Program-made: the position numbers and the translations under genes
Source: Candida dubliniensis CD36
Taxonomy: Eukaryota > Ascomycota > Pichiomycetes > Serinales > Debaryomycetaceae
NCBI RefSeq assembly: GCF_000026945.1
Contig: NC_012861.1
Location: 744,001-808,000 of the forward strand
Direction: 5' to 3'
DNA length: 64,000 bases
In this document: positions 2,366-60,039 of the stretch, piece by piece
How the letters are laid out: each line of letters begins with the position of its first letter
Numbering within the stretch: position 1 is the stretch's first letter
Notes under the pieces: generated by a model
Told to the model about the DNA's origin: nothing
The model's input: the letters and a program-made list of their open reading frames with translations, nothing else
The model's database searches: none

Positions 2366-2997
2366 GCCAAATGCTTTTTCTTTTTTCTTCGATACCAAAA
2401 AGAAACTGTTCCTGGCCGTATTCTTTTTTTTTTCTTGGAGGGGGTTTCCACCCCCATTCGTGCCCTACACTGGCCGCCATTTCACCCCCATCTTTAAATA
2501 CAAGAACAAAAACTAAACATCTAATACTTTATCCAACTATAACCTTAATTAGTTTTTTTAAAAAAAGACCAACTGTATGTTCAAGATTACCACTTTGACC
2601 TCTTCATTTGCCGATAGTTTATTCTGTTAGGGTCTTGTCCTATCTCTGTTTTGTTTGGTGAAAAATATTAGATAGATATAGCTGACATATTGACCGAAGA
2701 AGATTGAGGGGGTGTGATATAGTTGACTTAGAACTGCGAAATTATATCGAATCCTTATTATCAACTCAATCACTATGTTCTTTACAAAATAAAAGTATCA
2801 AAAAAAAAAAAAGGCGTATTATATAACATTAAGATTATGGTATAATATATAAAATCTTGTATTTAAAACGTAATAAAAAATATTAATTACAAAAGTATAA
2901 CTGAAAAAAGAATGGTGGAAAATATAATTAATCTTGGTCTCTTCTATCCTCTATAATCTTGAATGGCAGTTGTGTTTGCAGAAGCAGCAATGGTGTT
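1..2997. other. Intergenic region without a recognisable gene
   Basis: About 3 kb at the left edge of the window. I see only short, low-complexity reading frames rich in Phe, Ser and Lys, produced by T-rich and A-rich tracts. No tRNA, repeat family or domain is recognisable. It contains many T homopolymers and lies downstream (3') of the minus-strand Ada-like gene. It may hold part of the 5' region of a gene outside the window. Confidence 0.6.
2335..2364. repeat. Poly-T tract (30 nt)
   Basis: An uninterrupted run of 30 T. It is the longest homopolymer I counted in the window and a typical slippage-prone tract of an AT-rich yeast intergenic region. Confidence 0.9.
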
Positions 2998-4668
2998 TTA
3001 GTTGTGGTGGGTTCCAGTTGGTGTGGCGATGCTTGCCAATTGTGGAAGAAACAACCCGGCAGCAATAGTATCATCATTGGTGATATTGGTAGTGGTGGTG
3101 TCTTCATCTACGCCAGCGCCAAATGAAAACATTGAATTGAAGCCATTATTGTTACTAGCGTTATTATATGGATTAACACTAGTAGTGGTGAACATGTTTT
3201 CATCAAACATCGAAGAGTATGAACCTAAATCCTCACCTAATCCATAGTCAATTGACGACGACTGTGTATGTGATTGTATTGGCTGAGAATAATCCAAATC
3301 TTTAAACATATCAGTGTTAAACATTGGTGCACTGGTATTATTATTCGAAATTGAATCAGTCACGCTGATATTGGTTGTCGAAGATGATGAAGGTACGGAG
3401 TCAAACATTTCACTGAATACTGGAGCGGTTGATGATGGCACTGAAAATTGTTGGTGTTGATAGTTTTGTTGCGATGGTAATATGTTGTATTGTAATTTAT
3501 CATCATTATTGTTTACACTGTTGTTGTTGGGAAGCAAATTGTAATCGGAATAAGAAGGCATTTTCGTCATTGGCAAACTTGATTCATCAGCAAAGTTCAT
3601 ATTCAACAATTGATCATCTAAAGTTGTTGGGTACGATATTGTTCCCATATCGGAAACTGCAGTGTTTGGATTGCTTAGACTTGGTATTGTTTGACTTATT
3701 GGTGTCAATGGAATCGAAGGATTGGAAGCTGTGTCATCATGAGGAGAAAATACCGAATCACTGGCACTATGGTGGTGATGTTTTTTCTTGTTGCTTGAAC
3801 CAGCTGCTGTTGTGGCAGATAACTGTGGTGAAGTTAGCGACGATGAAGTCGAGGACTTTGGTGTTGAATACACTTCAAATGTGGTATACTCACCTGATTC
3901 TTTGACTTTCTTAATAAAATCCCAACATTTGTCACCATAAGTCTTAGGGGTCAACCCGAGCACCGATTTAAACACTCGATGGAAATGCCAAGCACTCAAC
4001 TTTGATTTAGCAGCCAACTCTTTGAATCCAAGCACACCACCTCTTCTTCTTCTTCTTTTCCCATTACCATTAGCAGTGGGGGAACTTGGCTCCTCGGTAC
4101 TGTTTGATTGTTGTTTTGGTTGAAATACATTTATAGCAGCAGCTAATGCCAAATGACGACATGCCAAATCAACCAAACGGTAATGGTCCGAATCATTTTT
4201 CGATAAACTCAAATCTTTGCTAGTAATATTTGGAACGGACCCACGATGATGGCTGCTTTTAAGATCACCAAAGTTATGAATGGATCTTAATCCGTCTTCT
4301 TCTTTTCTTGTTTCAATAATATTTTCTTTGATTTTCCGAGTATTTGATTCTTCGTTTTCATCCAATAAAGGTTGAATAAACCCGATTCTTTCATTAACAG
4401 TAGCAACACATTTGATTAACAAATTGACGTCAATGGCATAACTATGAATAGGATCGCATGTTTCACATGGCTTGTATCCCAACAGCAATGCTTCTTCATT
4501 GGTGTCAGTAAACTTGATTTCCAGTTTCAAATTGGTGGTTGGTCGAGAATCACAATCGGGACGACAATAAATTTGACTGACTTTATTACAAACGAAAAAT
4601 GACCCAGCCGCAAATGGGTCATTGAATTGGTAGGCTTTCCATTTAGAAGCTTCACTAGAATAAACCAT
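2998..4668 (-). CDS. ADAEC: Ada-like regulator with metal-binding and AraC-type HTH domains
   Basis: A 556-residue protein. Residues about 8-75 match the N-terminal metal-binding domain of bacterial Ada: Cys35, Cys39, Cys68 and Cys71 have nearly the spacing of the four zinc-binding cysteines of E. coli Ada, in the motif YCRPDC and later PCETC. In bacteria the first of these accepts methyl groups from phosphotriesters in DNA. After a linker with an Arg-rich patch (RRRRR), residues about 210-260 resemble an AraC helix-turn-helix (LSAWHFHRVFKSVLGLTPK). The O6-methylguanine transferase domain of full Ada is absent. The remaining 290 residues are Ser/Asn/Gln-rich and look like an activation region. 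I infer a DNA-binding transcription factor, possibly responding to DNA methylation. The symbol ADAEC is from memory of the Candida literature and is moderately sure. It has very long flanking non-coding regions. Confidence 0.85.
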   Translation of the reverse strand: MVYSSEASKWKAYQFNDPFAAGSFFVCNKVSQIYCRPDCDSRPTTNLKLEIKFTDTNEEALLLGYKPCETCDPIHSYAIDVNLLIKCVATVNERIGFIQPLLDENEESNTRKIKENIIETRKEEDGLRSIHNFGDLKSSHHRGSVPNITSKDLSLSKNDSDHYRLVDLACRHLALAAAINVFQPKQQSNSTEEPSSPTANGNGKRRRRRGGVLGFKELAAKSKLSAWHFHRVFKSVLGLTPKTYGDKCWDFIKKVKESGEYTTFEVYSTPKSSTSSSLTSPQLSATTAAGSSNKKKHHHHSASDSVFSPHDDTASNPSIPLTPISQTIPSLSNPNTAVSDMGTISYPTTLDDQLLNMNFADESSLPMTKMPSYSDYNLLPNNNSVNNNDDKLQYNILPSQQNYQHQQFSVPSSTAPVFSEMFDSVPSSSSTTNISVTDSISNNNTSAPMFNTDMFKDLDYSQPIQSHTQSSSIDYGLGEDLGSYSSMFDENMFTTTSVNPYNNASNNNGFNSMFSFGAGVDEDTTTTNITNDDTIAAGLFLPQLASIATPTGTHHN

Positions 4669-7600
4669 CTTAGGAATTAATAGTATTAACTTGTTGTTGT
4701 CGTGGTGGTGGTGGTAGCAAGTAGTAATAGTAGTTGGGGTTTCTAGTTGTTTATTGTGAAACTCTTAATTAATATTATTATTTAAATTGGGGAAAAAACC
4801 CTTGAATTGAAATAATTTGACGGGGGTGGCAATTTATATATATACTGTTTTCAGTGTATATCTGTTGATAAGGTATAATTTATTTTCCGTCGTTTCCAAT
4901 TGAATATAAATAATATTATTTTCTAAATGGATAAGTTAAAATAAAAATGAAAAAGAATTCCTCGAGGATAAATTGAAAAATAAAAAAAAAGGGGGAAGAA
5001 TTTGAAAACGGAGGAGGAGGAGGAGAAATATTGGTGGGTTTATATATAGATGATATGTTTCTGGTGTATGCACAATTGTTTGTATATATGTGTAAGTGTG
5101 TGTAAGTATATGTGTGGGAGGGTTATTGGGGGGGGGATGAGTGTGTGTGTAGTGATTGTGTGAGGGGGTGCACAAAAAAAAGATGAGTGATGTAATTTCA
5201 AGTATTGAGGCGTTGTGTTCTATTCCGATAACTTAGCACAAAACTAAAGGGGGAAAAGGAAGATTGAAAAAAAGAAATAGAAACACAATAGAATTGCAGG
5301 AAACACAAAGCTGGCCCTCAAAAAAAAAAAAAAAATTGATTGTTTCGTTAGTTAGTTTTATAATAATTGACTAAAGATACACAACCACAAAACTTATCTC
5401 TATGACGAAATACTTTTTGTTTTCAGTCTGATGCAGATGTATAAACTAACAACTCAAAAAATAGATTTTAAATTTTCACTCTGGAATATATTTTAAATTT
5501 TTAATCACAAAGGACAACCTTGGTATTAAAAATCAAATCTTAGAATGTCGTAGAACAGGAAAGATAAATGTTCACGATTCGGGTTTCCAAACTAATCTAA
5601 TATATTTTAAATCAGTTTTTGGATTTTAGTTGGTGTAATTGGTATTAGTTTCAAAAATGCAAATAATGTATATCCCAATTTTGTGCACCAGTTGTACCAA
5701 CACGCCTTTTTTGGATCGGATAAAATAAATAATAATCGATAATATCTCAGAAGAACAAGTGACTTAATCACTTTAGGTAATTAATATCCGAAAATAAAGT
5801 GAACGTTGTTTCTTAAAAGTATATGATTTAAAGTAATAACAGCCTTAAGCGAAACTAAAATAGCTTGAATGTTGTTATTATTCAATAAGGTTTGTTGGAA
5901 TTGAAAAGGGAAAAAGAATACAATCGGAACAATAGAAGACAAAAAAATAAGCAACGGTGAACTCGAGAGATTGCAAGGTGATCTCTTCTCATATTTATAG
6001 TTCAAACATCTCGAATAATCACAATTATTAATTTGAGAGCAATGAATGAAAAACCAAGACCTTGTCAGTTAGAAATTATCATAGCCATTGGCAAATGTAG
6101 TTTTCCTATCCATTCAGGAGGAGAAAATGGAGTTCCTTGAGCATTCAATGTTTTTTATTTAAACTTTTCATAGTCTACGAATATGTGGATTTACTTGTTT
6201 TCAGTCTTTAAATTCTACAAATGGTAAAAGGATCAACTCAATGCAAAAAAGAAAACAGAACTGATGAACAAGCCCTTATATTTAAAGTTTAACACTCATA
6301 GCATTGGTTGTTTAAGTTGTGAAATTCTGAGTACAAAAAATTTAGTTTTCACCTAACCATACAAGTTTTGGATATAAGAGCAGCCACAGATGAAGTATTG
6401 TTAAAAAGTTTGTTCATTGAGTTGTGAATGAAATAGATAGTTTTGGACTGTTATACTACTGAAATTCGACACACCAAACTAGCCAAAGTGTTATTTCTTC
6501 CCTTTCCATTGTTGAAATCCCAAGTCTATTCCATTTTGCAGCTTTTTTTTTTTGAATATTATTATTTCTTCTTTGCCTTGTGACGGACAATGTTTGTGTC
6601 TATTCACTGTGTGCAGGATAATGTCGTTTTCATTTTTAAATAGATTTGCGCATCATCATTTTGCAAATTCTTTTCCCAAACTAGAAGCTAACAAGCACAA
6701 CCACCTATATTAGACTTAACAACTAATATTACATGGGATATATTTCAAACTAAAAACAAATAGTCCTATCTACATGGGGTTTTTTTTGTTAAGTTTTTTT
6801 TTTTGCCTCTCCTTTCACGCCTTGGGAAAAAGAAACAAAAAAAAAAAGCTAGTGAAACTCCCTTCTATTGTTTGTTCATGGCAAGTGTAATTCTCCACAG
6901 ATTGTATTCTTAGAGACGGAAATCTGTAGAGTTTGTTAAAATATAACAATCGTGTCTAAGATTCTGGCGGACGGGATTCCAGAAATAAAGAGTAAGTTTG
7001 CCAGCCAGCATATAATTATTCAATTGCCAGTGCTATTTAGATTGTCTTTCAATTGGTAATGATGCCAATGACAATTACATCATCATTATCAACGAGTTTG
7101 ACATACAGCTTTAATTATTTTTATAGATATGTAATAAGTAATGGATTACGTAATAATCCCTTACCACTTGCAACTTTAAAATCACAGATAAAATATTTTG
7201 TTTTTAAACAGCACCTGTGGTTGAGAAAAAAAAAAAGACTAAAAAATAAAAATAGAGTTTCTATTGTTAGTATTTCGGTATAACATATATCCGTGGCTAA
7301 AATAGGCGAAATAAAAAAAAAAATGTTCAAAAACTGAATGAACAAATAAAGAATACAAAAAATAAAACCGATACAAAATTACAAAATCATGAATCGGTGA
7401 GTTTCAAAACCAACTTATTATAATTCTATTTAGCAAATTATAATAATTCTAACTATCAAAATTATTATAAATTCAAGAATAAGCAATAATTCTAATCGGT
7501 TTCTACTAAAGCAGATAATCAGATGTTTTTACAACAGATTCAGAACTAGAAACGATGATAAAGAGCACTATAAAATAATGTTACAAAGGCAACAATGCAT

Positions 7601-23747: not shown

Positions 23748-26011
23748 TTGCACAATATTTCTTAGAGCAAAAAAAAAAAAAAAAAATGAATCAAAAGAGC
23801 TATTGGAAAGTATATCGTATTGTAGAGCATGGTTTGCAATCGATGGATGGATATGAATGAACAGGATATAATGTTTGTCTTTCTCTTAGAGCTGAGTGAT
23901 ACGTTTTTGGTGACAACAATCGCAGATTAATGGCAAATCACCACAATTCGAATCGAATCCTTGTAATATTATTTTTTTTTTTCATGCTGTTAGCCCCTTT
24001 GACACTCGTGTAGGTACTTGATCAATAAATGTAATTTTTAAAGTTGGACATATTTTTCAGTTGCTAAGCTAGTTAGTGTCCAACTTTATAGAGATACAAG
24101 ACTGGATGTTGTTTAAACAACTGGTAGCTATTCCTCGGTGATGTGATACAAATGCACTTGTCTGAGATTGTTATAATGACAGGATTACCCCTGCATGTGA
24201 CTGCCTCTACTACAGATTATTTGTTCAAAACGTAGGAATGATAAACGATCAATTACAATATGATTACACTCAACTCCAACTATAGGAGTGGAGGCAAGAA
24301 ATGATTGCTTCTGTTGAAGATTAAAATTTCTTTCTGTTTAGGTTACTGACAAGGACCTCCACTTACCAACATTTTTTTCTGTATATGAGGGGGCATTGTA
24401 AAGTTTGAAGTTTGATTTTCCTTTAAAATTTGTAACCTGCATAAGACTTGAGAGTGTTTGTTTTACACTTTTATTCTTTATTATAGTTTCGAAGAATTTC
24501 CTAGGAACTTGAGAATTTGTAGGAGAACGCTAATAAGAAGTTGGTATTTCTTAATTGAAAGTTATAATCGTAAGAATATATTGTAAAGTAAGATGATGAT
24601 ATAAAAGAAAAGATATAAAAATTATATAAAAAGGTATTGTAAAATAAAGGTCTATGAAAAACACATAGAATAGAATATTTGCACACAAAATAAAAGTAGT
24701 GCGAATTTGACAGAAATGTAAAATCAAACAAGAGTAAGGAAAACCCCCTTTTTCTTGTTTTTGAACTAATCGGACTAAAAAAGCAAAAAGTACTTTTGAT
24801 AGTACTTGGTTTGATAAAACTATCAGTGACAGTAGTCGAGTGTTTATTTTAGGCTAACGCATGTTGCTAGAAAACAGTTGTGTACTGCCTCTTTCACAGT
24901 ATTGTAATTTCAGTTAAGTCCGTTGGAAGAAGTCATTTTTTTGGTGGGGTAAACAGGTGCCAAAAAAAAATATAAAGAGCGGGGTTCAATATGATACGTT
25001 TGTAAACTGTTACACCACGAACCTCACAGCACCATCATCATCTGTATTTCTTGTTATTGCATAAATTGTACAGAAGAATCTGAGGCTCATAACCAGTTTT
25101 TGTTTCAATCGGTCTAAATATATAGAGTGACAAATCATCTTGGTTTAAGGTACCTTATGTTTTTGGGGAGTTTCACATATACACCAGAAGCTCAGGTGTT
25201 GATAGATATCAAGTGCAAAAGAAATGTCTTGATGACATTTGTGGGAAACTACTTGATCTACTAACCAGATTGAACTGTCCACATTGAAGAAGTAATAAAT
25301 GAATTTGCCACAGTCGAACTTGTGTCATAATGTGACTCTAGAGATGTATATAGTACAAAATCGTATTCAGGTAAGTAGAAAATGAAGATTATGGCAAAAG
25401 AGTATTATAATACAATTAGTTATAGGTGCCGGTGGCACTATAAGAGAAATCAAAAATTATGAGGAGAATGATATTTCCACAATTTTTCCGTTAGAAAAAG
25501 AAATAATAGAATAGAGTGATGTATAAACTATAGAAGTTAACTGATTGAAAGGGAGGCGGCTAAGAAGGGGAAAAAGAAATAATATCCGTAAATTGAATGT
25601 GATTGCATCGAAAGGACATGACGACATTGAAAACTACTTTGTAAAGTTAAGACTAAAAACTACCATACAATGCACCAAAAATGTTTATTGGCTGTTGATT
25701 GAAAAATTCACATGTCGTAGTTTCCTCCATCAAAAAAAAAAAAAAAAACTAAAAATGGAGTGACAAAATATTACTCCATGCACCATGCGGAGATAGTACA
25801 GTTCACATATACACTCTCTAGAGTCGTCATAAAGACATCATAAACAGCATGGAAAAAAAAAAAAAAAAAAAAAGTATAAATAACTCCCGTCATCCTGTTT
25901 ACTCATCTTCTGGTGTTTTAGAGTCCCAGGTTTTCAAACTTTTTCCTTTTCTATTTTCATTTACTTGACTTTCGAGAACTTGTATTTATTAACAACAACA
26001 TCTCCATCGAT
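23748..26011. other. Intergenic region upstream of the flavin monooxygenase
   Basis: 2.26 kb with only short low-complexity frames. It contains A-runs at 23769-23786 and near 25734-25748. Near the right end an A-run of 21 (25853-25873) is followed directly by a TATAAATA box. No tRNA, LTR or recognisable gene relic was seen. Confidence 0.5.
25875..25882 (+). promoter_or_regulatory. TATA box of the flavin monooxygenase gene
   Basis: TATAAATA 130 bp upstream of the ATG at 26012, immediately after a 21-nt A tract, which is a typical nucleosome-excluding promoter arrangement in yeast. Use in vivo is inferred. Confidence 0.5.
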
Positions 26012-49530: not shown

Positions 49531-49538
49531 TTCTTATT

Positions 49539-49628
49539 GCAGCTTTAGCTCATCTGGGAGAGCGTCAGACTGAAGTATTTCAAAAGCCTGAAATCTGGAG
49601 GTACTGTGTTCGAGCCACAGAAGCTGCA
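49539..49628 (+). tRNA. tRNA-Phe (anticodon GAA) with intron
   Basis: 90 nt including an intron of 17 nt at 49576-49592, just 3' of position 37. The acceptor GCAGCTT pairs with AAGCTGC. The anticodon stem TCAGA/TCTGG encloses C-T-GAA-G...A. The T arm is CTGTG-TTCGAGC-CACAG. Introns at this position are usual in yeast tRNA-Phe genes. The mature length would be 73 nt before CCA addition. Confidence 0.93.
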
Positions 49629-49629
49629 A

Positions 49630-52032: not shown

Positions 52033-54897
52033 CTATATACTACTAAATGTACAAATTTGGTCATTAATCATTTCCATATCCCATCTCTTCGTTATATCTG
52101 GTTCCAAACAACCAATTACAATGTCATATAACCACTCAAATTCTCTTTTGTCTTTATATTTGCTCCATTCATCCTCTAATTTTATTAAATCATTTTGTCT
52201 ATTCATATCAATTAATGAATTTGAATTAAGAAGCTCATTAGTCCAACTAGAACTGCTATTATCAGCCGAGTTACAATTTTGTTGCTGTTGATTTTGGTGC
52301 TTCTGTTTAGTATCTTCTTTCAATACCCACTCTAATAAACAAGCCTTGCGTAAATCCAATTTATTGAATTTTCCTGATGCTATTATTGCTCTCAATCTGG
52401 GTTCATAGTGATGTTGGAACGGTAATCTGCCAACAATCATAGCATAAATCAATACACCAAACGCCCATACGTCAGCACTAGGACCCAAAGGTGGTGGCGA
52501 AGGTTGCAAAATTTCGGGCGACGCATAAGGTAAGGACCCAATATGAGAATGGGGCAAACCTGAATCTAGTCCATTCTCTTCTTTACCGTCGTTATGCAGT
52601 TGTTGATATCTTGAAAAAATCGGTTTACTATTGTCAAAGTTATCATTTTTGTTTGTGAGATCAAAATAACCATCAGAAGGGGAATGCCCGTTTTCTGAAA
52701 CAACTGGAGTTAAATGGATCGATTGCATTGAAGGACCATGAGCTCGGAAAAAATTGGCTAGTCCAACCCGTGAGTCATCTCTTATATCAAACTCTAATTT
52801 GCGAGTATTTGGTGAATCGCCGCCAAAATACGGTTTCCTAAATTCAATATTGGAAGATCTACTTCTCATCATGAGTGTATCTTCAAGATCACCATCAATA
52901 GATAATTTGCTGTTGCCCTTATAATGAATGTGTCTTTTCGATGATTTGCGACTAATCCTTGAACTATAAACTCTCGACATTCCAAAATCACATAAAATCA
53001 TTTTACAATGACCCTTTTCTCTTTCCACTAAAACGTTCTCCAATTTAAGATCTCCATGTACTATACCCTTTTCTTCGTGCATATAAAGCAATGCTTGGAC
53101 TATTTGACGAGCACACTCAATCACTTTTAAAAGTCTTTGGCGTTGCTCTTCAAACAGGTATTCCAAAGGTCCACACATGACATTAACCCTAGCATTGAAT
53201 TGTCCCCAGGAATCAACAACCTCAAATAAAGTACCTCCATTTATTCTGTTCATGATACAAAAAATTGCGTCTTCAGTTTCATAATAATCAATTAGTGGTA
53301 ATATATTATCATGGTGCAACTGCTTCCAAATTTGAATTTCTTTTTTGAAAACCTCTAAAACTCGAGGGTTTTTGCTCTTCATGGAAGCATTTAAATCTGT
53401 TTTGGAATTCAAATTGCCACTAGAATGGTTCCCATTACCAGACCCTCCATCAAAATCACGAGTTGATTTTACAATCTTAATAGCTCTTACGATTCCATCT
53501 TCTTGGTCGGTACATTCCCTAATAGTTCCCCAAGCACCAAACCCAATAACTTTACCCAACTCATGGCCCAAAACTATGGCGCCTTTTTCATCAACATTGT
53601 ATTTTGGTTTCATTGCTTCCTGGAGTTTTTTAAAGTCAGAGGTTGAAGTCCTTGCCAATAGTCTTCCAGCAAGTGTGTTGAGACTCCCCACACGATTTCG
53701 GCGAGATAAACTACTACTGGCAGATGCAATACCAGTACCACTACTACTCCCTTTCAAAGTCTTAGCCGAGCCCACTGAGGAACCAAGATAGTTTTTAGCA
53801 AACAATGAAAATTGCGAATAATCAATTGATTCAGAAAACGATTTCACCAATTTCTTGCGTTGAGAGTATGGCATATCATTGAAATTGGGTGGCAAACTAT
53901 TGATGATTAGTTCGTAATTGATCTCACCAGTAGCAGGGTCTATAGCTGATTTTTGTTTCTTTCTTGCTTTCGAACTTTCTGCCATTGCACCAGCAGATGT
54001 TTCACGCTTAGCAGAACTAGGACTTGAACCTAATCCAGATGATGATCTAGAAAAATCATCCTTCGTTAACAGTACTATATCATTATCCTCGATATCATTA
54101 TTTTTATTGTTATAAGCATTTCTTTGTTGTTTAGTTTTCATAAATTCATGCAATTTGGAGTAAGATAAATTTCTTTGTTGATCAGTTGAAGTCTTGATAG
54201 GTTGTGGAGCCACTTTGGAATGCAATAGATTTAAATCAAGGTACGATCCATCTCGGCTTCTTGGTGTATTTGAATGTGTGGTATACAAACTCACATTCGT
54301 AGTGTTTCGTGTCAAATCCAAATTGGAATTGGAATTGCTGTTCCACTTGGAAACAAGACTCGAGAAATCTAATCCGGGTATAAACTCTTCATATCCCGTT
54401 TCATCTTTATAGCCTATATTGCTGTCGTGAGATCTTGCATGTAACTGATTGTTGTTGTCGTTATTGTCATTAATGCTATTTGTGCCGCGGTTGGTGACAT
54501 TGTTTCTACCAACATCACCGGAATTATTAAAGTTGTTGATATTTGTAAATGTATTTCGTGCACCCAAGTGTTCATGTTTGATTTGATGTGGTCGAATTTT
54601 ACCATCAGCAAATATCCTATGTCCAGTGTCTGGGTCAAAATTGTTCTTCTCTGTTTCTGAATATCGTCGAGAAAATGTATAATTTGGAGGAAACCCTTCT
54701 AGTTGTTGCTGATTCTTTGAACTGTGTCTAATTTTTAGATAATCAGGATTCAACTGAGATGGTTCATCAGAATCCTTTTTATCTATATCCAACGAGGCTG
54801 ACGATAATGAATTTGTGGTGGATCCAATTTCAAATTTGGAGTCTGCAAGAAGGTTCACTGTAGATACCTTTGGTTTTGATTTCAAGGGAATATCCAT
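52033..54897 (-). CDS. NNK1: Serine/threonine protein kinase, Nnk1-like
   Basis: 954 residues. The long N-terminal region (about 1-430) is Ser/Asn-rich with short conserved-looking motifs (GHRIFADGKIRPHQIKHEHL, LPPNFNDMPYSQRKKLV) and is probably regulatory. The kinase domain runs from about 440 to the end: glycine loop GFGAWG at about 452, the VAIK-type lysine in RAIKIVK, catalytic loop HGDLKLEN at about 609 (HGD instead of HRD), DFG at about 636, and the substrate-side motif YASPEI at about 790. About 150 residues between DFG and SPE are inserted in the activation segment, rich in Ser and charged residues. S. cerevisiae Nnk1 acts in nitrogen signalling, interacting with TOR and Gdh2. The name rests on overall pattern and neighbourhood with STE11. 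An insertion lies 401 bp upstream. Confidence 0.82.
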   Translation of the reverse strand: MDIPLKSKPKVSTVNLLADSKFEIGSTTNSLSSASLDIDKKDSDEPSQLNPDYLKIRHSSKNQQQLEGFPPNYTFSRRYSETEKNNFDPDTGHRIFADGKIRPHQIKHEHLGARNTFTNINNFNNSGDVGRNNVTNRGTNSINDNNDNNNQLHARSHDSNIGYKDETGYEEFIPGLDFSSLVSKWNSNSNSNLDLTRNTTNVSLYTTHSNTPRSRDGSYLDLNLLHSKVAPQPIKTSTDQQRNLSYSKLHEFMKTKQQRNAYNNKNNDIEDNDIVLLTKDDFSRSSSGLGSSPSSAKRETSAGAMAESSKARKKQKSAIDPATGEINYELIINSLPPNFNDMPYSQRKKLVKSFSESIDYSQFSLFAKNYLGSSVGSAKTLKGSSSGTGIASASSSLSRRNRVGSLNTLAGRLLARTSTSDFKKLQEAMKPKYNVDEKGAIVLGHELGKVIGFGAWGTIRECTDQEDGIVRAIKIVKSTRDFDGGSGNGNHSSGNLNSKTDLNASMKSKNPRVLEVFKKEIQIWKQLHHDNILPLIDYYETEDAIFCIMNRINGGTLFEVVDSWGQFNARVNVMCGPLEYLFEEQRQRLLKVIECARQIVQALLYMHEEKGIVHGDLKLENVLVEREKGHCKMILCDFGMSRVYSSRISRKSSKRHIHYKGNSKLSIDGDLEDTLMMRSRSSNIEFRKPYFGGDSPNTRKLEFDIRDDSRVGLANFFRAHGPSMQSIHLTPVVSENGHSPSDGYFDLTNKNDNFDNSKPIFSRYQQLHNDGKEENGLDSGLPHSHIGSLPYASPEILQPSPPPLGPSADVWAFGVLIYAMIVGRLPFQHHYEPRLRAIIASGKFNKLDLRKACLLEWVLKEDTKQKHQNQQQQNCNSADNSSSSWTNELLNSNSLIDMNRQNDLIKLEDEWSKYKDKREFEWLYDIVIGCLEPDITKRWDMEMINDQICTFSSI

Positions 54898-55298
54898 AAT
54901 AGTTGATCTTCATAAAGAAAAAGCTGAATATTGGTTGTAAAAAATTTTAGGGAGTAAATATCCAAAATACGCAAATAACCCTAAAAAGAAAAAACAAAAA
55001 AATGAATCACCATATTAGAAAAAAAAAAAAATGAATCAAAGATTAAGAGGAAGGGAGTGGGAAGAGAAACAAAAAAAAAAAAGTGTGATGATGATGATTC
55101 AAAAACTTTTAGCCATTTTCCTCCTTCTCACTCTTCCCCACCAACATCCCCTGTGTTATCCCGGAGTTCGTATATCATTATTCTATTACCCCTCTTTATT
55201 TATTTTATGGGATATATTTAAATGCCCAACAACCTCTTTATTTTACATAGTCTGTCTTTTTAGAATCATCTATAATTTCAATTTAAACCTCATTATAG
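54898..55298. other. NNK1 upstream region, truncated by the inserted element
   Basis: 401 bp between the NNK1 start and the left arm of the inverted-repeat element. It contains two A-runs (55019-55031 and 55071-55082) and no gene. The NNK1 promoter is limited to this stretch unless it extends into the element. Confidence 0.5.
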
Positions 55299-55730
55299 TA
55301 TATAATTAATACACATTAATTTATATTATTAGTATTACTCAAAGCTAGAAGATAACATTCCTTAAGGTACTTCAGTTAAGAATAATAATCAGTAACCCTC
55401 ACGGTACCAATAACACAGAAAATATATTTTCTGTTCTATCAAATATTTCTATCAACAACTTTTATAACAGTATCAACTTTTGTTAAAACTTAAATAAACC
55501 AAAAACAATATAAACTTTCCAAATTACAAAAAAAAAATTTATTAACTCTTATTAAAATCAAAATGGCTAAAAACACTAGATCTACTACTTCTTCCAACGC
55601 TGAAGCTGTTGAAGCTACCGACGCTACTACTTCCGTCAATGTTCCTTCATAATCTGAAAACGAAACCTCCCATCGTTTGTCTACTCTTGAAAACGGATTA
55701 TCAACTCTCGGACATCGTTTCTCTTCTATG
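55299..55730 (+). repeat. Left arm of the inverted repeat (432 bp)
   Basis: It matches the reverse complement of 57072-57503 without gaps. By eye there are about five substitutions: one A/T in the leader and four in the coding part (codons 30, 36, 45 and 51). It contains a perfect 20-bp palindrome at 55415-55434 centred on AATATATT, which could be a promoter element, and an A10 tract before the gag ATG. Confidence 0.9.
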
Positions 55731-57101
55731 GAAAATGGTTTTACTGACATGAAGAGTCAATTAGCTCAAATTATTACCAATTTCCAAACTTTTGCTCAAG
55801 ACCAAAATAAGGAAATGGAATATATTAAAACTGAAGCTGCTAAAGGTATTAATGAATTGCACGAGAGAGAGAACCAAACTCAGGATCGTGAATTACACCT
55901 CGAAGACGTTGAGGCGAAGCTCGAACTGAGAGAAGCTAAGCTTGAACAGAAAACAGCTTTCCACGAACAGCAAGAAGCTCAAAACTTTAAGGAAGTTGAT
56001 GATGAATTATTGTGGTTGAAGGATTATATTGAGAAGACTGAAGCCACTACAGCTTGTTTAGAAGCTCAGTTAGAGAATTCTGTTCCAAAAGGTGCTATTG
56101 ACAACAGAGACTCTATTGACTTCAAACTTAAACGCTTCTTACCTGATGCGGATTTTAGTGATGGTGATCCTGCGGGAGCAGTTACCAAACAACCCTTTGT
56201 TTCAGACGATTTAATCATCTCAGGATCCAATGATGAAGAAGCATTGACAAAGTTTACGGCTTTGCAATCGCACTTTCGCGGTAATCTTTTAGAAAAGAGA
56301 ATCTGGTTTTTCGCAGCCAGACCTTATATTCGGGATAATTTGGCCCATTCTTATCATGCTCTTTCCCCAGCTCAACAAAATTGGAAAGGTTTAGCTACAT
56401 TGATAGTTAACGCTCAAGACTGTGAACGAGTTAATGGTAACAAAACCTTGGAAAAGAACAGATTAACCCCGCAACCTGGTGAATCTGTAGTTCTGTTTAT
56501 TCAAAAGGCTCAGAACTTTAGCCAAGCTACTATTTCCTACCGCAACAGTTTTATCAATGATAAAATTAATTTGATTTTTATCCTTAACAAAAATTTTGCT
56601 TATCTTGTTGCCCATGCTAAATTGGATTTGATTAACACTGCCGACGAATTTTATTCAACTGCTATTACTAGGTTTACAGGTTTGAATTTCCCCACTACTA
56701 CTGCAGTAAATGCTATTGAGTACGACACGGAAGAAACTCCTTTTGCTGACGAATTCATTCAAGACGAAGAGTCAGATGATGATGAATATGAGTTAGCATA
56801 CATTCGTCGTTTCAATAACTATCAGAGTAAACCTAAGTACAAATCTAATTATCAATCCAATAACTATCAAAACTCCAATTATCCGAGATCCAATTATCAA
56901 CAACCAAACTATCAAAGATTTAATAATTATCATTCTTCCAATCCGTTTTACCAGTCCAATAACACCTCACAATACCAACCTCGCAATAATTATTATAATA
57001 ACTCAAAGGATAATAAATTTAATCAGACAAAAAAATTCAATCCACACAGACATGACAACAACAGACAACAACATAGAAGAGAAACGATTTCCGAGAGTTG
57101 A
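55563..57101 (+). pseudogene. gag-like gene with early in-frame stop and lost 3' end
   Basis: It starts at ATG 55563. Codon 30 is TAA (55650-55652), where the right-arm copy has CAA. After it the frame is open to 57101. The protein would have Ser/Thr-rich start, heptad-like repeats (STLENGLSTLGHRFSSMENG), a coiled coil through about residue 180, a globular region with FKLKRFLPDADFSDGDP and NWKGLATLIVNAQD that looks capsid-like, an acidic stretch (DEESDDDEYE), and an Asn/Tyr/Arg-rich basic tail suited to RNA binding. There is no CCHC zinc knuckle. Native gag sequence ends at about 57071. The last ten codons read antisense through the right arm, so the original C-terminus and any pol are missing. 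Readthrough of TAA is possible but not supported. Confidence 0.75.
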
Positions 57102-57239
57102 TAATTCGTTTTCAAGAGTAGACAAACGATGAGAGGTTTCGTTTTCAGATTGTGAAGGAACATTGACGGAAGTAGTGGCGTCGGTAGCTTCAACAGCTTC
57201 AGCGTTGGAAGAAGTAGTAGATCTAGTGTTTTTAGCCAT
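57072..57239 (-). pseudogene. Inverted fragment of the same gag-like gene (56 codons)
   Basis: It starts at ATG 57239 on the minus strand and encodes the first 56 residues of the gag-like protein with Gln at codon 30 instead of a stop. After Met56 the sequence leaves the homology and enters the left copy's 3' part. It shows that an intact version of the gag start existed. Confidence 0.85.
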
Positions 57240-57503
57240 TTTGATTTTAATAAGAGTTAATAATTTTTTTTTTTGTAATTTGGAAAGTTTATATTGTTTT
57301 TGGTTTATTTAAGTTTTAACAAAAGTTGATACTGTTATAAAAGTTGTTGATAGAAATATTTGATAGAACAGAAAATATATTTTCTGTGTTATTGGTACCG
57401 TGAGGGTTACTGATTATTATTCTTAACTGAAGTACCTTAAGGAATGTTATCTTCTAGCTTTGAGTAATACTAATAATATAAATTAATGTGTATTAATTAT
57501 ATA
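57072..57503 (-). repeat. Right arm of the inverted repeat (432 bp)
   Basis: The reverse complement of 55299-55730, gapless and about 99% identical by eye. It ends 67 bp from the STE11 stop codon. Confidence 0.9.
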
Positions 57504-57570: not shown

Positions 57571-60039
57571 TTATTGTTTCGACATAATCAATGGATTTAA
57601 AAATTGTTCAGCTAACAACTCAATTGCATCTGGTCTCATTTCAAAATTAATCTCAAATGTTTTCTTTAAAAATTCTTTTGCTTCATTAGTACACCATTCA
57701 GGGATTTGCGGGGTAATATGATTACCAATCTTAAATAAAGCTTGCATTTGACTCAACTCTGGAAATGGATGTCTACCAGTAAACATTTCCACAATCAAAC
57801 ATCCCACTGACCAAATATCAGCTTTCTTGGTATATGTAGTCTGCTTGACCACTTCGGGTGCCATCCAGAATACTGATCCTTGTAAAGATGCTCTTTTTCC
57901 TGTCTTTTTGAAATCTTCATCTTCTTCATCGATAGCACTAACTTTTTTACTAATACCAAAATCACCAATTTTGACTGTACCTTTGATATCAATCAATATG
58001 TTAGCTCCTTTAATATCTCGATGAATAATATCTTCACCATGCAAATAACTCAATCCAATCAATACTTGTCGGATGAAATTTCTTATCAACGGCTCTTCAA
58101 ATGGCCCGTACGAGTTTAACATAGATTGAACTGAACCTCCAGGGACATATTCCAAAAATATATTTAAAAAATTCTCATCTGTTGTAGATCCAAAATATCG
58201 AACTATATTCTCATGATTCAATTCCTTTAGTAACATCATTTCTCGTTGTTGCTCTTGCATTGATTTTTGCATATTTTCCGTATTATTATTTCCATTCTCA
58301 TTGACTAACGGTATTTGCTTTACCGCCATCAACTCACCTGTAAACGGATTCATTCCTAAGTACACCGTACCAAAACTACCAGAACCAATTCTAGCTCCTT
58401 TTAACCAATTTTCAGGTGGACCATTCTCTCCAGAACTAGAACTCAAACCAGCAAAATCGGAAGTACCAAATTCTCCATATTCTTCACCATCTTCGCCTTC
58501 TGAATCAGAAGGGTTCAATAATTCAATTGTGGAATGACGGTCATGTGCAGGATTATCATTATAATTCGGAGATATAGAAATTCTATGCAATGCAGTGCCT
58601 CCACTTAATGATTTTGACGATATTATTGACCTGGAATCATGATTATTTAATGGTTGTGTTGATTGATGTGAAAATGACGTTGAAGGTTTATTAAATACAG
58701 AGAATGTATCGTTTGAATTCACAACTTCGTCAATAGCAGTAATGCTATTCACCATCACATCCCCAATAGTCCTTTGTGCTCTTCTTAATCCACCACTACC
58801 ACCTCCACTGGTATTGAAAATTCCACTTTGTTGTTCACCAGAAGAAATCGACATAGTACGATTAGAAGGAAATCCAGTTGAGTTACTCAAAATAGACTGT
58901 CTCTTATTAAGAGAATACACACTAGAAGAAAATGCCCCTGCTGGCAAATTAAATCTTCGAGATAATCTAACACTATGTCTAACTGAGTTTCTAACTGTTT
59001 GTTCCAAATCTTTTTGTCTTGTGTCAGGGAAATATTCTGCTAAATTCGATGAAATCAATTCACTAGGAGGTCTTTGTCCAAAGAAATTCCTCAAGGTTGA
59101 TCTATGTGCTTGAACATCTTTGGTATGAAGTTGATTGACTTCCTCTTGCAATTCGGCTTTAGATCCAGAAACTTGCTTTTTATATTTGGACATGATTTTT
59201 TTCGATGTTTCAATGGCTGCTGGTGTAGGGGGTTCGTTTTTCGGCACCAACATTATACGATATTTCTCTAACCGTTCTGGTGAATAACAGATTGTAACTA
59301 ATTCAACGTCATATAGTAAAGTAATGGTAGGTTCAGTTTTGCCATACAACACATTCTCTACACCGTGCGGGACTGAATGGACATAAGTGTCAAATTGGAC
59401 TTCATCGGGTTTGAACCCTAATTTCTTCAAAACTCTTCTTTTAATTGCTTGTGCATTAAAACAACCAGTGACATTCACACGTTTGGTTGATCCGTCTTGC
59501 AAAATAAACGTAATATTCTTACTGGCATCTTTACTGGAAGTGCCACTACCGACAACGTTTCCAGTGTTACTATTGTTGGTATTACCGTTTATGTTGTTAG
59601 TGCTGGAGTTCATACTACTAATGGGCAAATTATTACTGGAATTGTTTTGACTTAGTTGAGTTAATGTCCCCTCGTTACTGTTGGATACATCTAACAAGCT
59701 ATTATTATTGTTATTCAAATTTGTCAAAGAACCATTTGTTCGAGTGTTTAAGTTTAATAATTGATATATCTCATCAACACTTATTAGTTCCTTTAAATTA
59801 TCTGCCTTTAAGTTAGATATTGCAATTTCTAATCTTAACCGGTCTCCTAATTTCGTAATACCCAATTCCTTTAATGAACCTGTATCTAATTCTGGTAGCA
59901 AATCCATGGTAATCCCATTTTCAATAAATTTGGAATAGTGATGTTGGCAGTTTGCCTTCACTAGCCAATGTTTTAATTCCTTTGCATCATTTCGATCTAT
60001 TCGAGCTATGTTTTCTGTAGAATCATTAATTTCTGTCAT
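57571..60039 (-). CDS. STE11: MAP kinase kinase kinase Ste11
   Basis: 822 residues with the full Ste11 layout. A SAM domain is at about 17-80 (LKHWLVKANCQHHYSKFIEN and LKELGITKLGDRLRLE), which binds Ste50 in yeast. A Ras-associating-like domain follows at about 186-260 (NITFILQDGSTKRV). A Ser-rich regulatory linker with basic patches comes next. A kinase domain spans about 545-815: IGSGSFGTVYLG, the lysine in MAVKQIPL, IIHRDIKGANILID, DFGISKK and WMAPEVVK. Ste11 phosphorylates the MAPKKs Ste7/Hst7 and Pbs2, serving mating, filamentation and osmotic pathways. Yeast Ste11 has 717 residues and the extra length lies in the linkers. Its 3' end is only 67 bp from the inserted element. Confidence 0.96.
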   Translation of the reverse strand: MTEINDSTENIARIDRNDAKELKHWLVKANCQHHYSKFIENGITMDLLPELDTGSLKELGITKLGDRLRLEIAISNLKADNLKELISVDEIYQLLNLNTRTNGSLTNLNNNNNSLLDVSNSNEGTLTQLSQNNSSNNLPISSMNSSTNNINGNTNNSNTGNVVGSGTSSKDASKNITFILQDGSTKRVNVTGCFNAQAIKRRVLKKLGFKPDEVQFDTYVHSVPHGVENVLYGKTEPTITLLYDVELVTICYSPERLEKYRIMLVPKNEPPTPAAIETSKKIMSKYKKQVSGSKAELQEEVNQLHTKDVQAHRSTLRNFFGQRPPSELISSNLAEYFPDTRQKDLEQTVRNSVRHSVRLSRRFNLPAGAFSSSVYSLNKRQSILSNSTGFPSNRTMSISSGEQQSGIFNTSGGGSGGLRRAQRTIGDVMVNSITAIDEVVNSNDTFSVFNKPSTSFSHQSTQPLNNHDSRSIISSKSLSGGTALHRISISPNYNDNPAHDRHSTIELLNPSDSEGEDGEEYGEFGTSDFAGLSSSSGENGPPENWLKGARIGSGSFGTVYLGMNPFTGELMAVKQIPLVNENGNNNTENMQKSMQEQQREMMLLKELNHENIVRYFGSTTDENFLNIFLEYVPGGSVQSMLNSYGPFEEPLIRNFIRQVLIGLSYLHGEDIIHRDIKGANILIDIKGTVKIGDFGISKKVSAIDEEDEDFKKTGKRASLQGSVFWMAPEVVKQTTYTKKADIWSVGCLIVEMFTGRHPFPELSQMQALFKIGNHITPQIPEWCTNEAKEFLKKTFEINFEMRPDAIELLAEQFLNPLIMSKQ

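What the first reader, a model, noticed from the sequence alone, without database searches (positions are those of the whole stretch)
55299..57503. 2.2-kb element built as a near-perfect inverted repeat of a gag gene start
Two 432-bp arms, gapless and about 99% identical, face each other. Each carries the same leader and the first 56 codons of a gag-like gene. Ordinary LTR retrotransposons have direct repeats, and the outer edges show no TG...CA ends. Possible explanations are an aberrant integration or template switch joining two cDNAs head to head, a deletion product of two oppositely oriented copies, or a distinct element class with inverted terminal repeats (DIRS-like elements have them). 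The high identity suggests recent formation or conversion between arms.
Basis: partly seen in the sequence, partly recalled or inferred. Interest (0 to 1): 0.75.

Follow-up and report, generated by a model that had tools for sequence, protein, structure and literature searches.

The report
Folded-back fragment of a yeast retrotransposon
A broken jumping gene in a yeast, probably a Candida, carries a second, backwards copy of its own front end, so any RNA read from it would fold into a long hairpin; it is most likely an ordinary rearranged remnant, but one that could feed the cell's RNA-interference machinery.

Summary
The inverted repeat is real: 55299-55730 faces 57072-57503, 426 of 432 matching, no gaps. 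Element: full 5' LTR, leader, 503 gag codons (stop at codon 30), then inverted gag codons 1-56, leader and 119 bp of LTR. No pol, 3' LTR or target duplication. Gag relatives are Ty3/gypsy-like. PF00589 (tyrosine recombinase) gave no match, so DIRS is disfavoured. A protein from another assembly (453 of 457 identical) reads through the inverted junction, so an assembly artefact is unlikely. Best reading: an LTR-element remnant whose 3' part was replaced by fold-back copying of its 5' end; main rival: two opposed copies plus deletions. A second gag family (C5) also has an inverted LTR, and three families share a perfect palindrome at the LTR/leader junction. The host has Argonaute and Dicer-type genes; a hairpin siRNA locus is possible but untested.

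The parts
55152..55417 (+). Complete 5' LTR, 266 bp, TGTGTTAT...ATAACACA
   Evidence: C8 solo LTR (C8:232555-232820) has the same ends, 5 of 266 mismatches
55299..55730 (+). Left arm: LTR positions 148-266, leader, gag codons 1-56
55415..55434 (.). 20-bp perfect palindrome spanning the LTR / leader junction (presumed primer-binding site)
   Evidence: pattern found at 5 places in the genome, all at such junctions
55418..55562 (+). Leader, 145 nt
   Evidence: between the LTR end and the gag ATG
55563..57071 (+). gag fragment, 503 codons, TAA at codon 30 (55650-55652); no protease or pol before the junction; the open frame runs 9 codons into the inverted arm
   Evidence: no significant Pfam family; homologues
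57072..57503 (-). Right arm, inverted: gag codons 1-56 (57072-57239), leader (57240-57384), last 119 bp of LTR (57385-57503)
   Evidence: LTR parts of the two arms identical
57368..57387 (.). Second copy of the palindrome, in the right arm
57571..60039 (-). Flanking STE11-like kinase gene (SAM, Ras-binding, kinase domains); its stop codon is 67 bp from the element's right edge and it is transcribed towards the element
   Evidence: the name STE11 is inferred from the domain set and recall
52033..54897 (-). Flanking protein kinase gene; the element lies 254 bp upstream of its ATG

Best explanation
It is a decayed insertion from the Ty3/gypsy-like lineage of this yeast: full 5' LTR, leader and most of gag. 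Its pol and 3' LTR were lost and replaced by an inverted copy of its own 5' end (gag codon 56 back to LTR position 148). Shown: the anatomy, the full left LTR, the missing 3' LTR and target duplication, a related family with normal direct LTRs, and the same inverted junction in another assembly. Inferred: a free 3' end inside gag, either at a broken chromosome end or in a nascent plus-strand cDNA, folded back or switched onto the sense 5' region, copied it outward as antisense through 119 bp of the LTR, and was joined to host DNA 67 bp from the STE11 stop codon. Consequence (inferred): a transcript from the LTR, or STE11 read-through, would form a 432-bp hairpin with a 1341-nt loop, which Dicer could cut. 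I put the rearranged-LTR-element part at about 0.95; the stated confidence is for the single fold-back event.
For: Arms and LTR limits. No matching target duplication and no LTR end on the right. Gag homologues in the same genome, weakly including an intact Ty3/gypsy-order element (25%, E 2e-4), and a 65%-identical gag fused to RNase H in P0002. P0001 reads through gag into the first 9 codons of the inverted arm in another assembly. No other internal copy of this family was found in the genome, only one solo LTR (the tool calls its counts lower bounds), so a within-element source needs the fewest events. RNA fold: 429 (plus strand) and 427 (minus strand) of 432 arm positions pair with their mirror.
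Against: No parent copy is held, so microhomology at either junction cannot be scored. C8:428433-450322 holds two opposed elements, 98.6% identical over 3583 bp and about 9 kb apart, exactly the starting point of the two-copy rival. All mismatches lie in the inner part of the arm, which plain copying followed by random mutation does not predict. The right arm of the other assembly was not recovered beyond its first 9 codons.
Confidence: 0.55

Rival explanations
1. Two copies of the same element inserted in opposite orientation between the two kinase genes. One deletion removed everything from gag codon 503 of the left copy to gag codon 56 of the right copy, and a second deletion removed the outer 147 bp of the right LTR with adjacent host DNA.
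For: Two opposed, near-identical elements of another family sit about 9 kb apart on C8. The C5 gag remnant is also followed by an inverted LTR. Arm divergence of 1.4% equals that of the C8 pair.
Against: Needs two insertions in what is now a 321-bp intergenic gap, plus two deletions. Only a solo LTR was found elsewhere, and the outer 239 bp of the arms are identical.
Confidence: 0.3
2. An aberrant reverse-transcription product was inserted as such: plus-strand cDNA switched onto the genomic RNA at gag codon 56 and ran to the RNA 5' end, so that LTR position 148 is the start of R.
For: The right LTR copy is cut at one internal point; a TATA-like stretch (55212) lies 87 bp upstream, within yeast promoter distance (the distance rule is recalled).
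Against: TATATAA at 55299 itself suggests that transcription starts further downstream. In the C5 case the inverted LTR reaches the LTR's TG end, which copying of RNA would not give.
Confidence: 0.1
3. A distinct mobile class with inverted terminal repeats (DIRS-like, or a gag-only element mobilised in trans).
For: The inverted layout occurs in two gag families.
Against: No PF00589 match in the genome (one model, a divergent recombinase could be missed); no second copy of the whole structure; no target duplication; the arms differ in extent between the two cases; the right arm is truncated.
Confidence: 0.03
4. Assembly artefact.
For: Inverted repeats can arise from chimeric clones or reads (general knowledge).
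Against: Six differences between the arms; another assembly's protein (299,775-bp contig, 4 differences in 457 aa) crosses the junction.
Confidence: 0.02

Closest known systems
Ty3/gypsy LTR retrotransposons of Candida (Tca3/Tcd3 type; these names are recalled, no paper on them was seen)
   Same: LTR with TG...CA ends, leader, gag; relatives with RT, RNase H, then integrase; same palindromic LTR/leader junction as the intact C3 element
   Different: Lacks pol, 3' LTR and target duplication; the 3' side is an inverted copy of the 5' end
Mu killer of maize (PMC3440606, abstract seen)
   Same: Partial inverted duplication of a transposon gene together with a terminal repeat region; a flanking gene could read into it
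   Different: Retrotransposon, not a DNA transposon; no silencing or siRNA shown; no full-length target found here
Palindromic siRNA loci of Naumovozyma castellii (PMC7528652, passages seen)
   Same: Long inverted repeat in a budding yeast that has Argonaute and a Dicer-type RNase III
   Different: No small-RNA data available for this locus
DIRS-like elements (features recalled)
   Same: Inverted repeats at the ends
   Different: No PF00589 recombinase found; left end is a TG...CA LTR end; the related C3 element carries an integrase

Membership tests
Ty3/gypsy LTR retrotransposon (intact member) | LTR with TG...CA ends | tested here: met
   55152-55417, confirmed by the C8 solo copy
Ty3/gypsy LTR retrotransposon (intact member) | Two LTRs in direct orientation with target duplication | tested here: not met
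   Right side has an inverted, truncated LTR; flanks CCCC and AAAT do not match
Ty3/gypsy LTR retrotransposon (intact member) | pol with RT, RNase H, integrase in that order | tested here: not met
   No such domain here; present in the related C3 element
Ty3/gypsy lineage (descent only) | gag homologous to gag of Ty3/gypsy-order elements | tested here: met
   25% identity to the 1798-aa C3 frame, E 2e-4, weak; P0002 gag 65% identical and fused to RNase H, PF17917 over its cut-off
DIRS-like element | Tyrosine recombinase | tested here: not met
   PF00589: 0 of 1 genome; rings in 14 of 14 control genomes, which are prokaryotic, so a divergent eukaryotic form could be missed
Hairpin siRNA locus (Mu killer / N. 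castellii type) | Long near-identical inverted repeat of a mobile element | tested here: met
Hairpin siRNA locus (Mu killer / N. castellii type) | Host has Argonaute and a Dicer-type RNase III | tested here: met
   (genes present; activity not tested)
Hairpin siRNA locus (Mu killer / N. castellii type) | Transcribed; gives 21-23-nt small RNAs; silences a target | not testable with these tools
   No RNA data at hand

The most novel reading that the evidence does not exclude
The locus is a natural hairpin-RNA gene: the LTR promoter or STE11 read-through makes a 432-bp double-stranded RNA that Dicer turns into small RNAs, which suppressed the parent element until only this trap and a solo LTR remained. 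Inverted gag/LTR remnants (this one and C5:1470649) would be kept, or made repeatedly, in RNAi-competent Candida as retrotransposon traps, perhaps helped by the palindromic primer site of this lineage.
Probability: 0.15. Interest if true: 0.65.

Novelty: new variant of a known kind. Interest (0 to 1): 0.4.

Why it matters
If it makes small RNAs, it would be a simple natural case of how a transposon remnant becomes its own silencer in a budding yeast; the role of RNAi at transposons of C. albicans is still called open (PMC11047096, passages seen). It is testable by mapping small RNAs to one locus. If it is silent, it still records fold-back rearrangement of a retrotransposon; an inverted layout is seen at two of the four loci that carry this palindromic junction.

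Tried and rejected
DIRS or another tyrosine-recombinase class: PF00589 gave 0 matches in the genome. Autointegration (integrase attacking its own cDNA): rejected because neither the inner junction nor the right edge is an LTR terminus; in the C5 case the inverted LTR lacks its last bases at the inner junction. Centromere-type repeats shared between chromosomes: rejected, because the only match found outside the element is one solo LTR. Assembly artefact: disfavoured. Searches that gave little: gag in viral contigs, 4 pattern matches, 0 confirmed. The 78-aa frame of the right arm found only the window's own copy, so presence of the whole right arm in the other assembly is not shown, only its first 9 codons. 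Pfam on gag: nothing over its cut-off. C2:155001-164000 was fetched as an integrase locus and showed only one 128-bp direct pair; not used. Papers: the Tcd3/Tca3 searches listed 20 of 43 and 12 of 81 papers; from titles and abstract starts I saw no description of these elements; one listed paper (PMC2864245) holds 'tca3' once and was not opened. The inverted-LTR search listed 12 of 461 papers, none of the 12 holding the term 'inverted LTR'. The search for template-switch duplications listed 2 of 2, not opened. Two papers were not held.

Full report
What was checked. The inverted repeat exists as described: 55299-55730 against 57072-57503, 432 nt without gaps, 6 mismatches, 1341 nt apart. Nothing else like it is in the window: of 22 inverted pairs of at least 45 nt, the next two in length (146 and 119 nt) are 76-79% and lie in two opposed open frames 9 kb apart, and the other 19 contain A/T runs. 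The window is C3:744001-808000 of a 14,618,422-bp genome in 8 contigs. The neighbours are kinase genes (SAM, Ras-binding and kinase domains on the right, STE11-like).

Anatomy. Searching the genome with 55151-55562 returned the query itself, the right arm, two rows of the short palindrome, and a C8 copy running past the arm edge to 55152. Both LTR copies are exactly 266 bp, start TGTGTTATCC, end CAATAACACA, and differ at 5 positions. So the left side of the element has a complete 5' LTR (55152-55417) and the arm begins at its position 148. Then follow a 145-nt leader and gag from 55563. The left gag has TAA at codon 30 where the right arm has CAA; after it the frame is open to 57101. At 57072, after gag codon 503, the sequence turns into the antisense of gag codons 1-56, leader and LTR positions 266 to 148, ending at 57503. 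There is no 3' LTR, no pol and no matching target duplication (flanks CCCC and AAAT). The C8 solo LTR also lacks a matching duplication (GTCT / GGGG). The left and right flanks together would be a 321-bp intergenic gap (254 + 67 bp).

Family. Gag homologues in the same genome, 5 loci besides the window at E <= 0.1: C7:14103 and C4:11653 (28% identity), C1:2255975 (22%), C3:1738675 (25%, E 2e-4) and C5:1470649 (35% over 84 residues, E 0.0014). The C3 locus is a 6260-bp element with two identical 297-bp direct LTRs, a 4-bp TATC duplication and one 1798-codon open frame holding RT, RNase H and then integrase, the Ty3/gypsy order. It is a related family, not another copy of this one: its DNA gave no match to the window element. 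In public proteins (2 hits at E <= 0.001; only the 7995 candidates sharing most words were scored), P0002 is identical at 226 of 349 aligned positions (65%) and is fused to an RNase H segment. P0001 is 453 of 457 identical, from a 299,775-bp contig, and its last 9 residues lie beyond the inverted junction, 8 of 9 as in the window. Another assembly therefore has the same junction. The organism of P0001 is not given. The right arm's own 78-aa frame was found only in the window.

Second case. The C5:1470649 locus (L018, read in reverse complement) has a 297-bp LTR (TGTTTTATTT...AAAACAAACA), a leader, a decayed gag 82% identical in DNA to the C7 one, and then an inverted LTR copy that reaches the LTR's TG end (pieces 83-96% identical) and is interrupted by a 278-bp block that also occurs, at 87%, upstream of the C7 and C4 gags, probably a nested solo LTR. 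The 5' end of this LTR is supported by relatives elsewhere in the genome that begin at the same base (C1:430681, C5:90521 and two partial ones; 10 matches in all, 3 of them in the C5 locus itself). Its 3' end is inferred from the CA and the palindrome. No target duplication is seen (flanks GATTG and AAAGG). A different gag family thus shows the same layout, LTR, gag, inverted LTR, but with a different inner breakpoint. That argues for a recurring accident or process rather than for one mobile element with fixed ends.

Palindromic junction. The window element has the perfect palindrome ACAGAAAATATATTTTCTGT straddling the LTR end; C5 has CAGAAAATTAATTTTCTG and the intact C3 element TCAGAAAATTAATTTTCTGA at the same place. 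The pattern CAGAAAATWWATTTTCTG occurs at 5 places in the genome (the reversed control pattern at 0; about 0.01 expected from assumed base composition): the two arms here, C3, C5, and a decayed sister of the C3 element on C8 with direct LTRs 86% alike. All 5 lie at LTR/leader junctions; the LTR end is fixed independently by a second LTR copy at 4 of the 5 and inferred at C5. A tRNA 3' end would call for TGG here (recalled), and there is none. I infer that the palindrome serves dimerisation or self-priming. Ty3 RNA dimerises through 5' palindromes (PMC11381356, abstract and passages seen) and Tf1 self-primes by another route (PMC7175516, passages seen). Of the 4 loci with this site, 2 have direct LTRs and 2 the inverted layout. 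That is too few to link the palindrome to the rearrangement.

Origin. The simplest account is one insertion whose 3' part was lost and whose free 3' end in gag was extended by copying its own 5' region backwards. Two opposed insertions with deletions is a serious rival, because the genome holds such a pair, of another family, on C8 (98.6% identical over 3583 bp, about 9 kb apart). The mismatch pattern (0 in the outer 239 bp, 6 in the inner 193; P = 0.0076, tested after looking) may reflect conversion between arms, or two slightly different parents. I cannot separate these without the parent copy or other isolates.

Possible function. A full transcript would fold so that 429 (plus) or 427 (minus) of 432 arm positions pair with their mirror. 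The genome has one Piwi-domain match, an Argonaute of 917 aa from the first ATG with PAZ and Piwi, and three RNase III matches (two over the cut-off), of which the best is a Dicer-type protein of 611 aa with two dsRNA-binding stretches. In Candida albicans, Argonaute is RNAi-active with E361 and inactive with K361 (PMC11047096, passages seen); this genome's Argonaute has E at residue 361 counted from its first ATG, matched by numbering and motif, not by an alignment. In N. castellii 74.1% of siRNA-locus reads came from palindromic loci (PMC7528652, passages seen). Against it: in C. albicans small-RNA peaks at transposons are much smaller than at TLO genes, and transposon transcripts did not rise without AGO1 (PMC11047096, passages); an artificial hairpin failed to silence in a strain derived from SC5314, which carries the K361 variant (PMC7175516 and PMC11047096, passages); no RNA data exist here; and no full-length target was found in this genome. 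I therefore put the hairpin-gene reading at 0.15.

Verdict. A real, rearranged LTR-retrotransposon remnant; not a new element class. The recurring inverted layout, the palindromic junction and a host that looks RNAi-competent make it worth one small-RNA experiment.

Noticed in passing
L018 (C5:1465501-1475500), reverse complement 2924-5880: A second, older LTR-gag-inverted LTR structure in a different gag family, with a probable solo LTR nested in the inverted LTR.
   Followed up: partly
window 55415-55434; L017 7056-7075; L018 6765-6782; C8:882901-882918: Perfect palindrome at the LTR/leader junction in three element families; all 5 genome hits of the pattern are such junctions. May be a self-priming or dimer site.
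   Followed up: partly
L017 1110-7369 (C3): Intact-looking Ty3/gypsy element with identical 297-bp LTRs, TATC duplication and a single 1798-codon gag-pol frame.
   Followed up: partly
C8:428433-450322 (L052-L054): Two opposed, 98.6% identical LTR elements about 9 kb apart with two related open frames between them, and a 151-bp stretch in the opposite relative orientation.
   Followed up: partly
L014 (C7:10001-20000) and L015 (C4:8001-18000): Near contig ends, gag is followed by a partial second gag in direct orientation (300 nt, 90-91%, spacing 1941 nt), with repetitive GTGGTCAAA-type sequence nearby.
   Followed up: no
window 24455-24730: Degenerate relative (74% and 81% in two pieces) of the C5 element's LTR, minus strand.
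   Followed up: no
window 49538-49629: ARAGORN reports a tRNA-like gene with a four-base anticodon (gaag) next to tRNA-Arg; probably a tRNA with an intron or a miscall.
   Followed up: no
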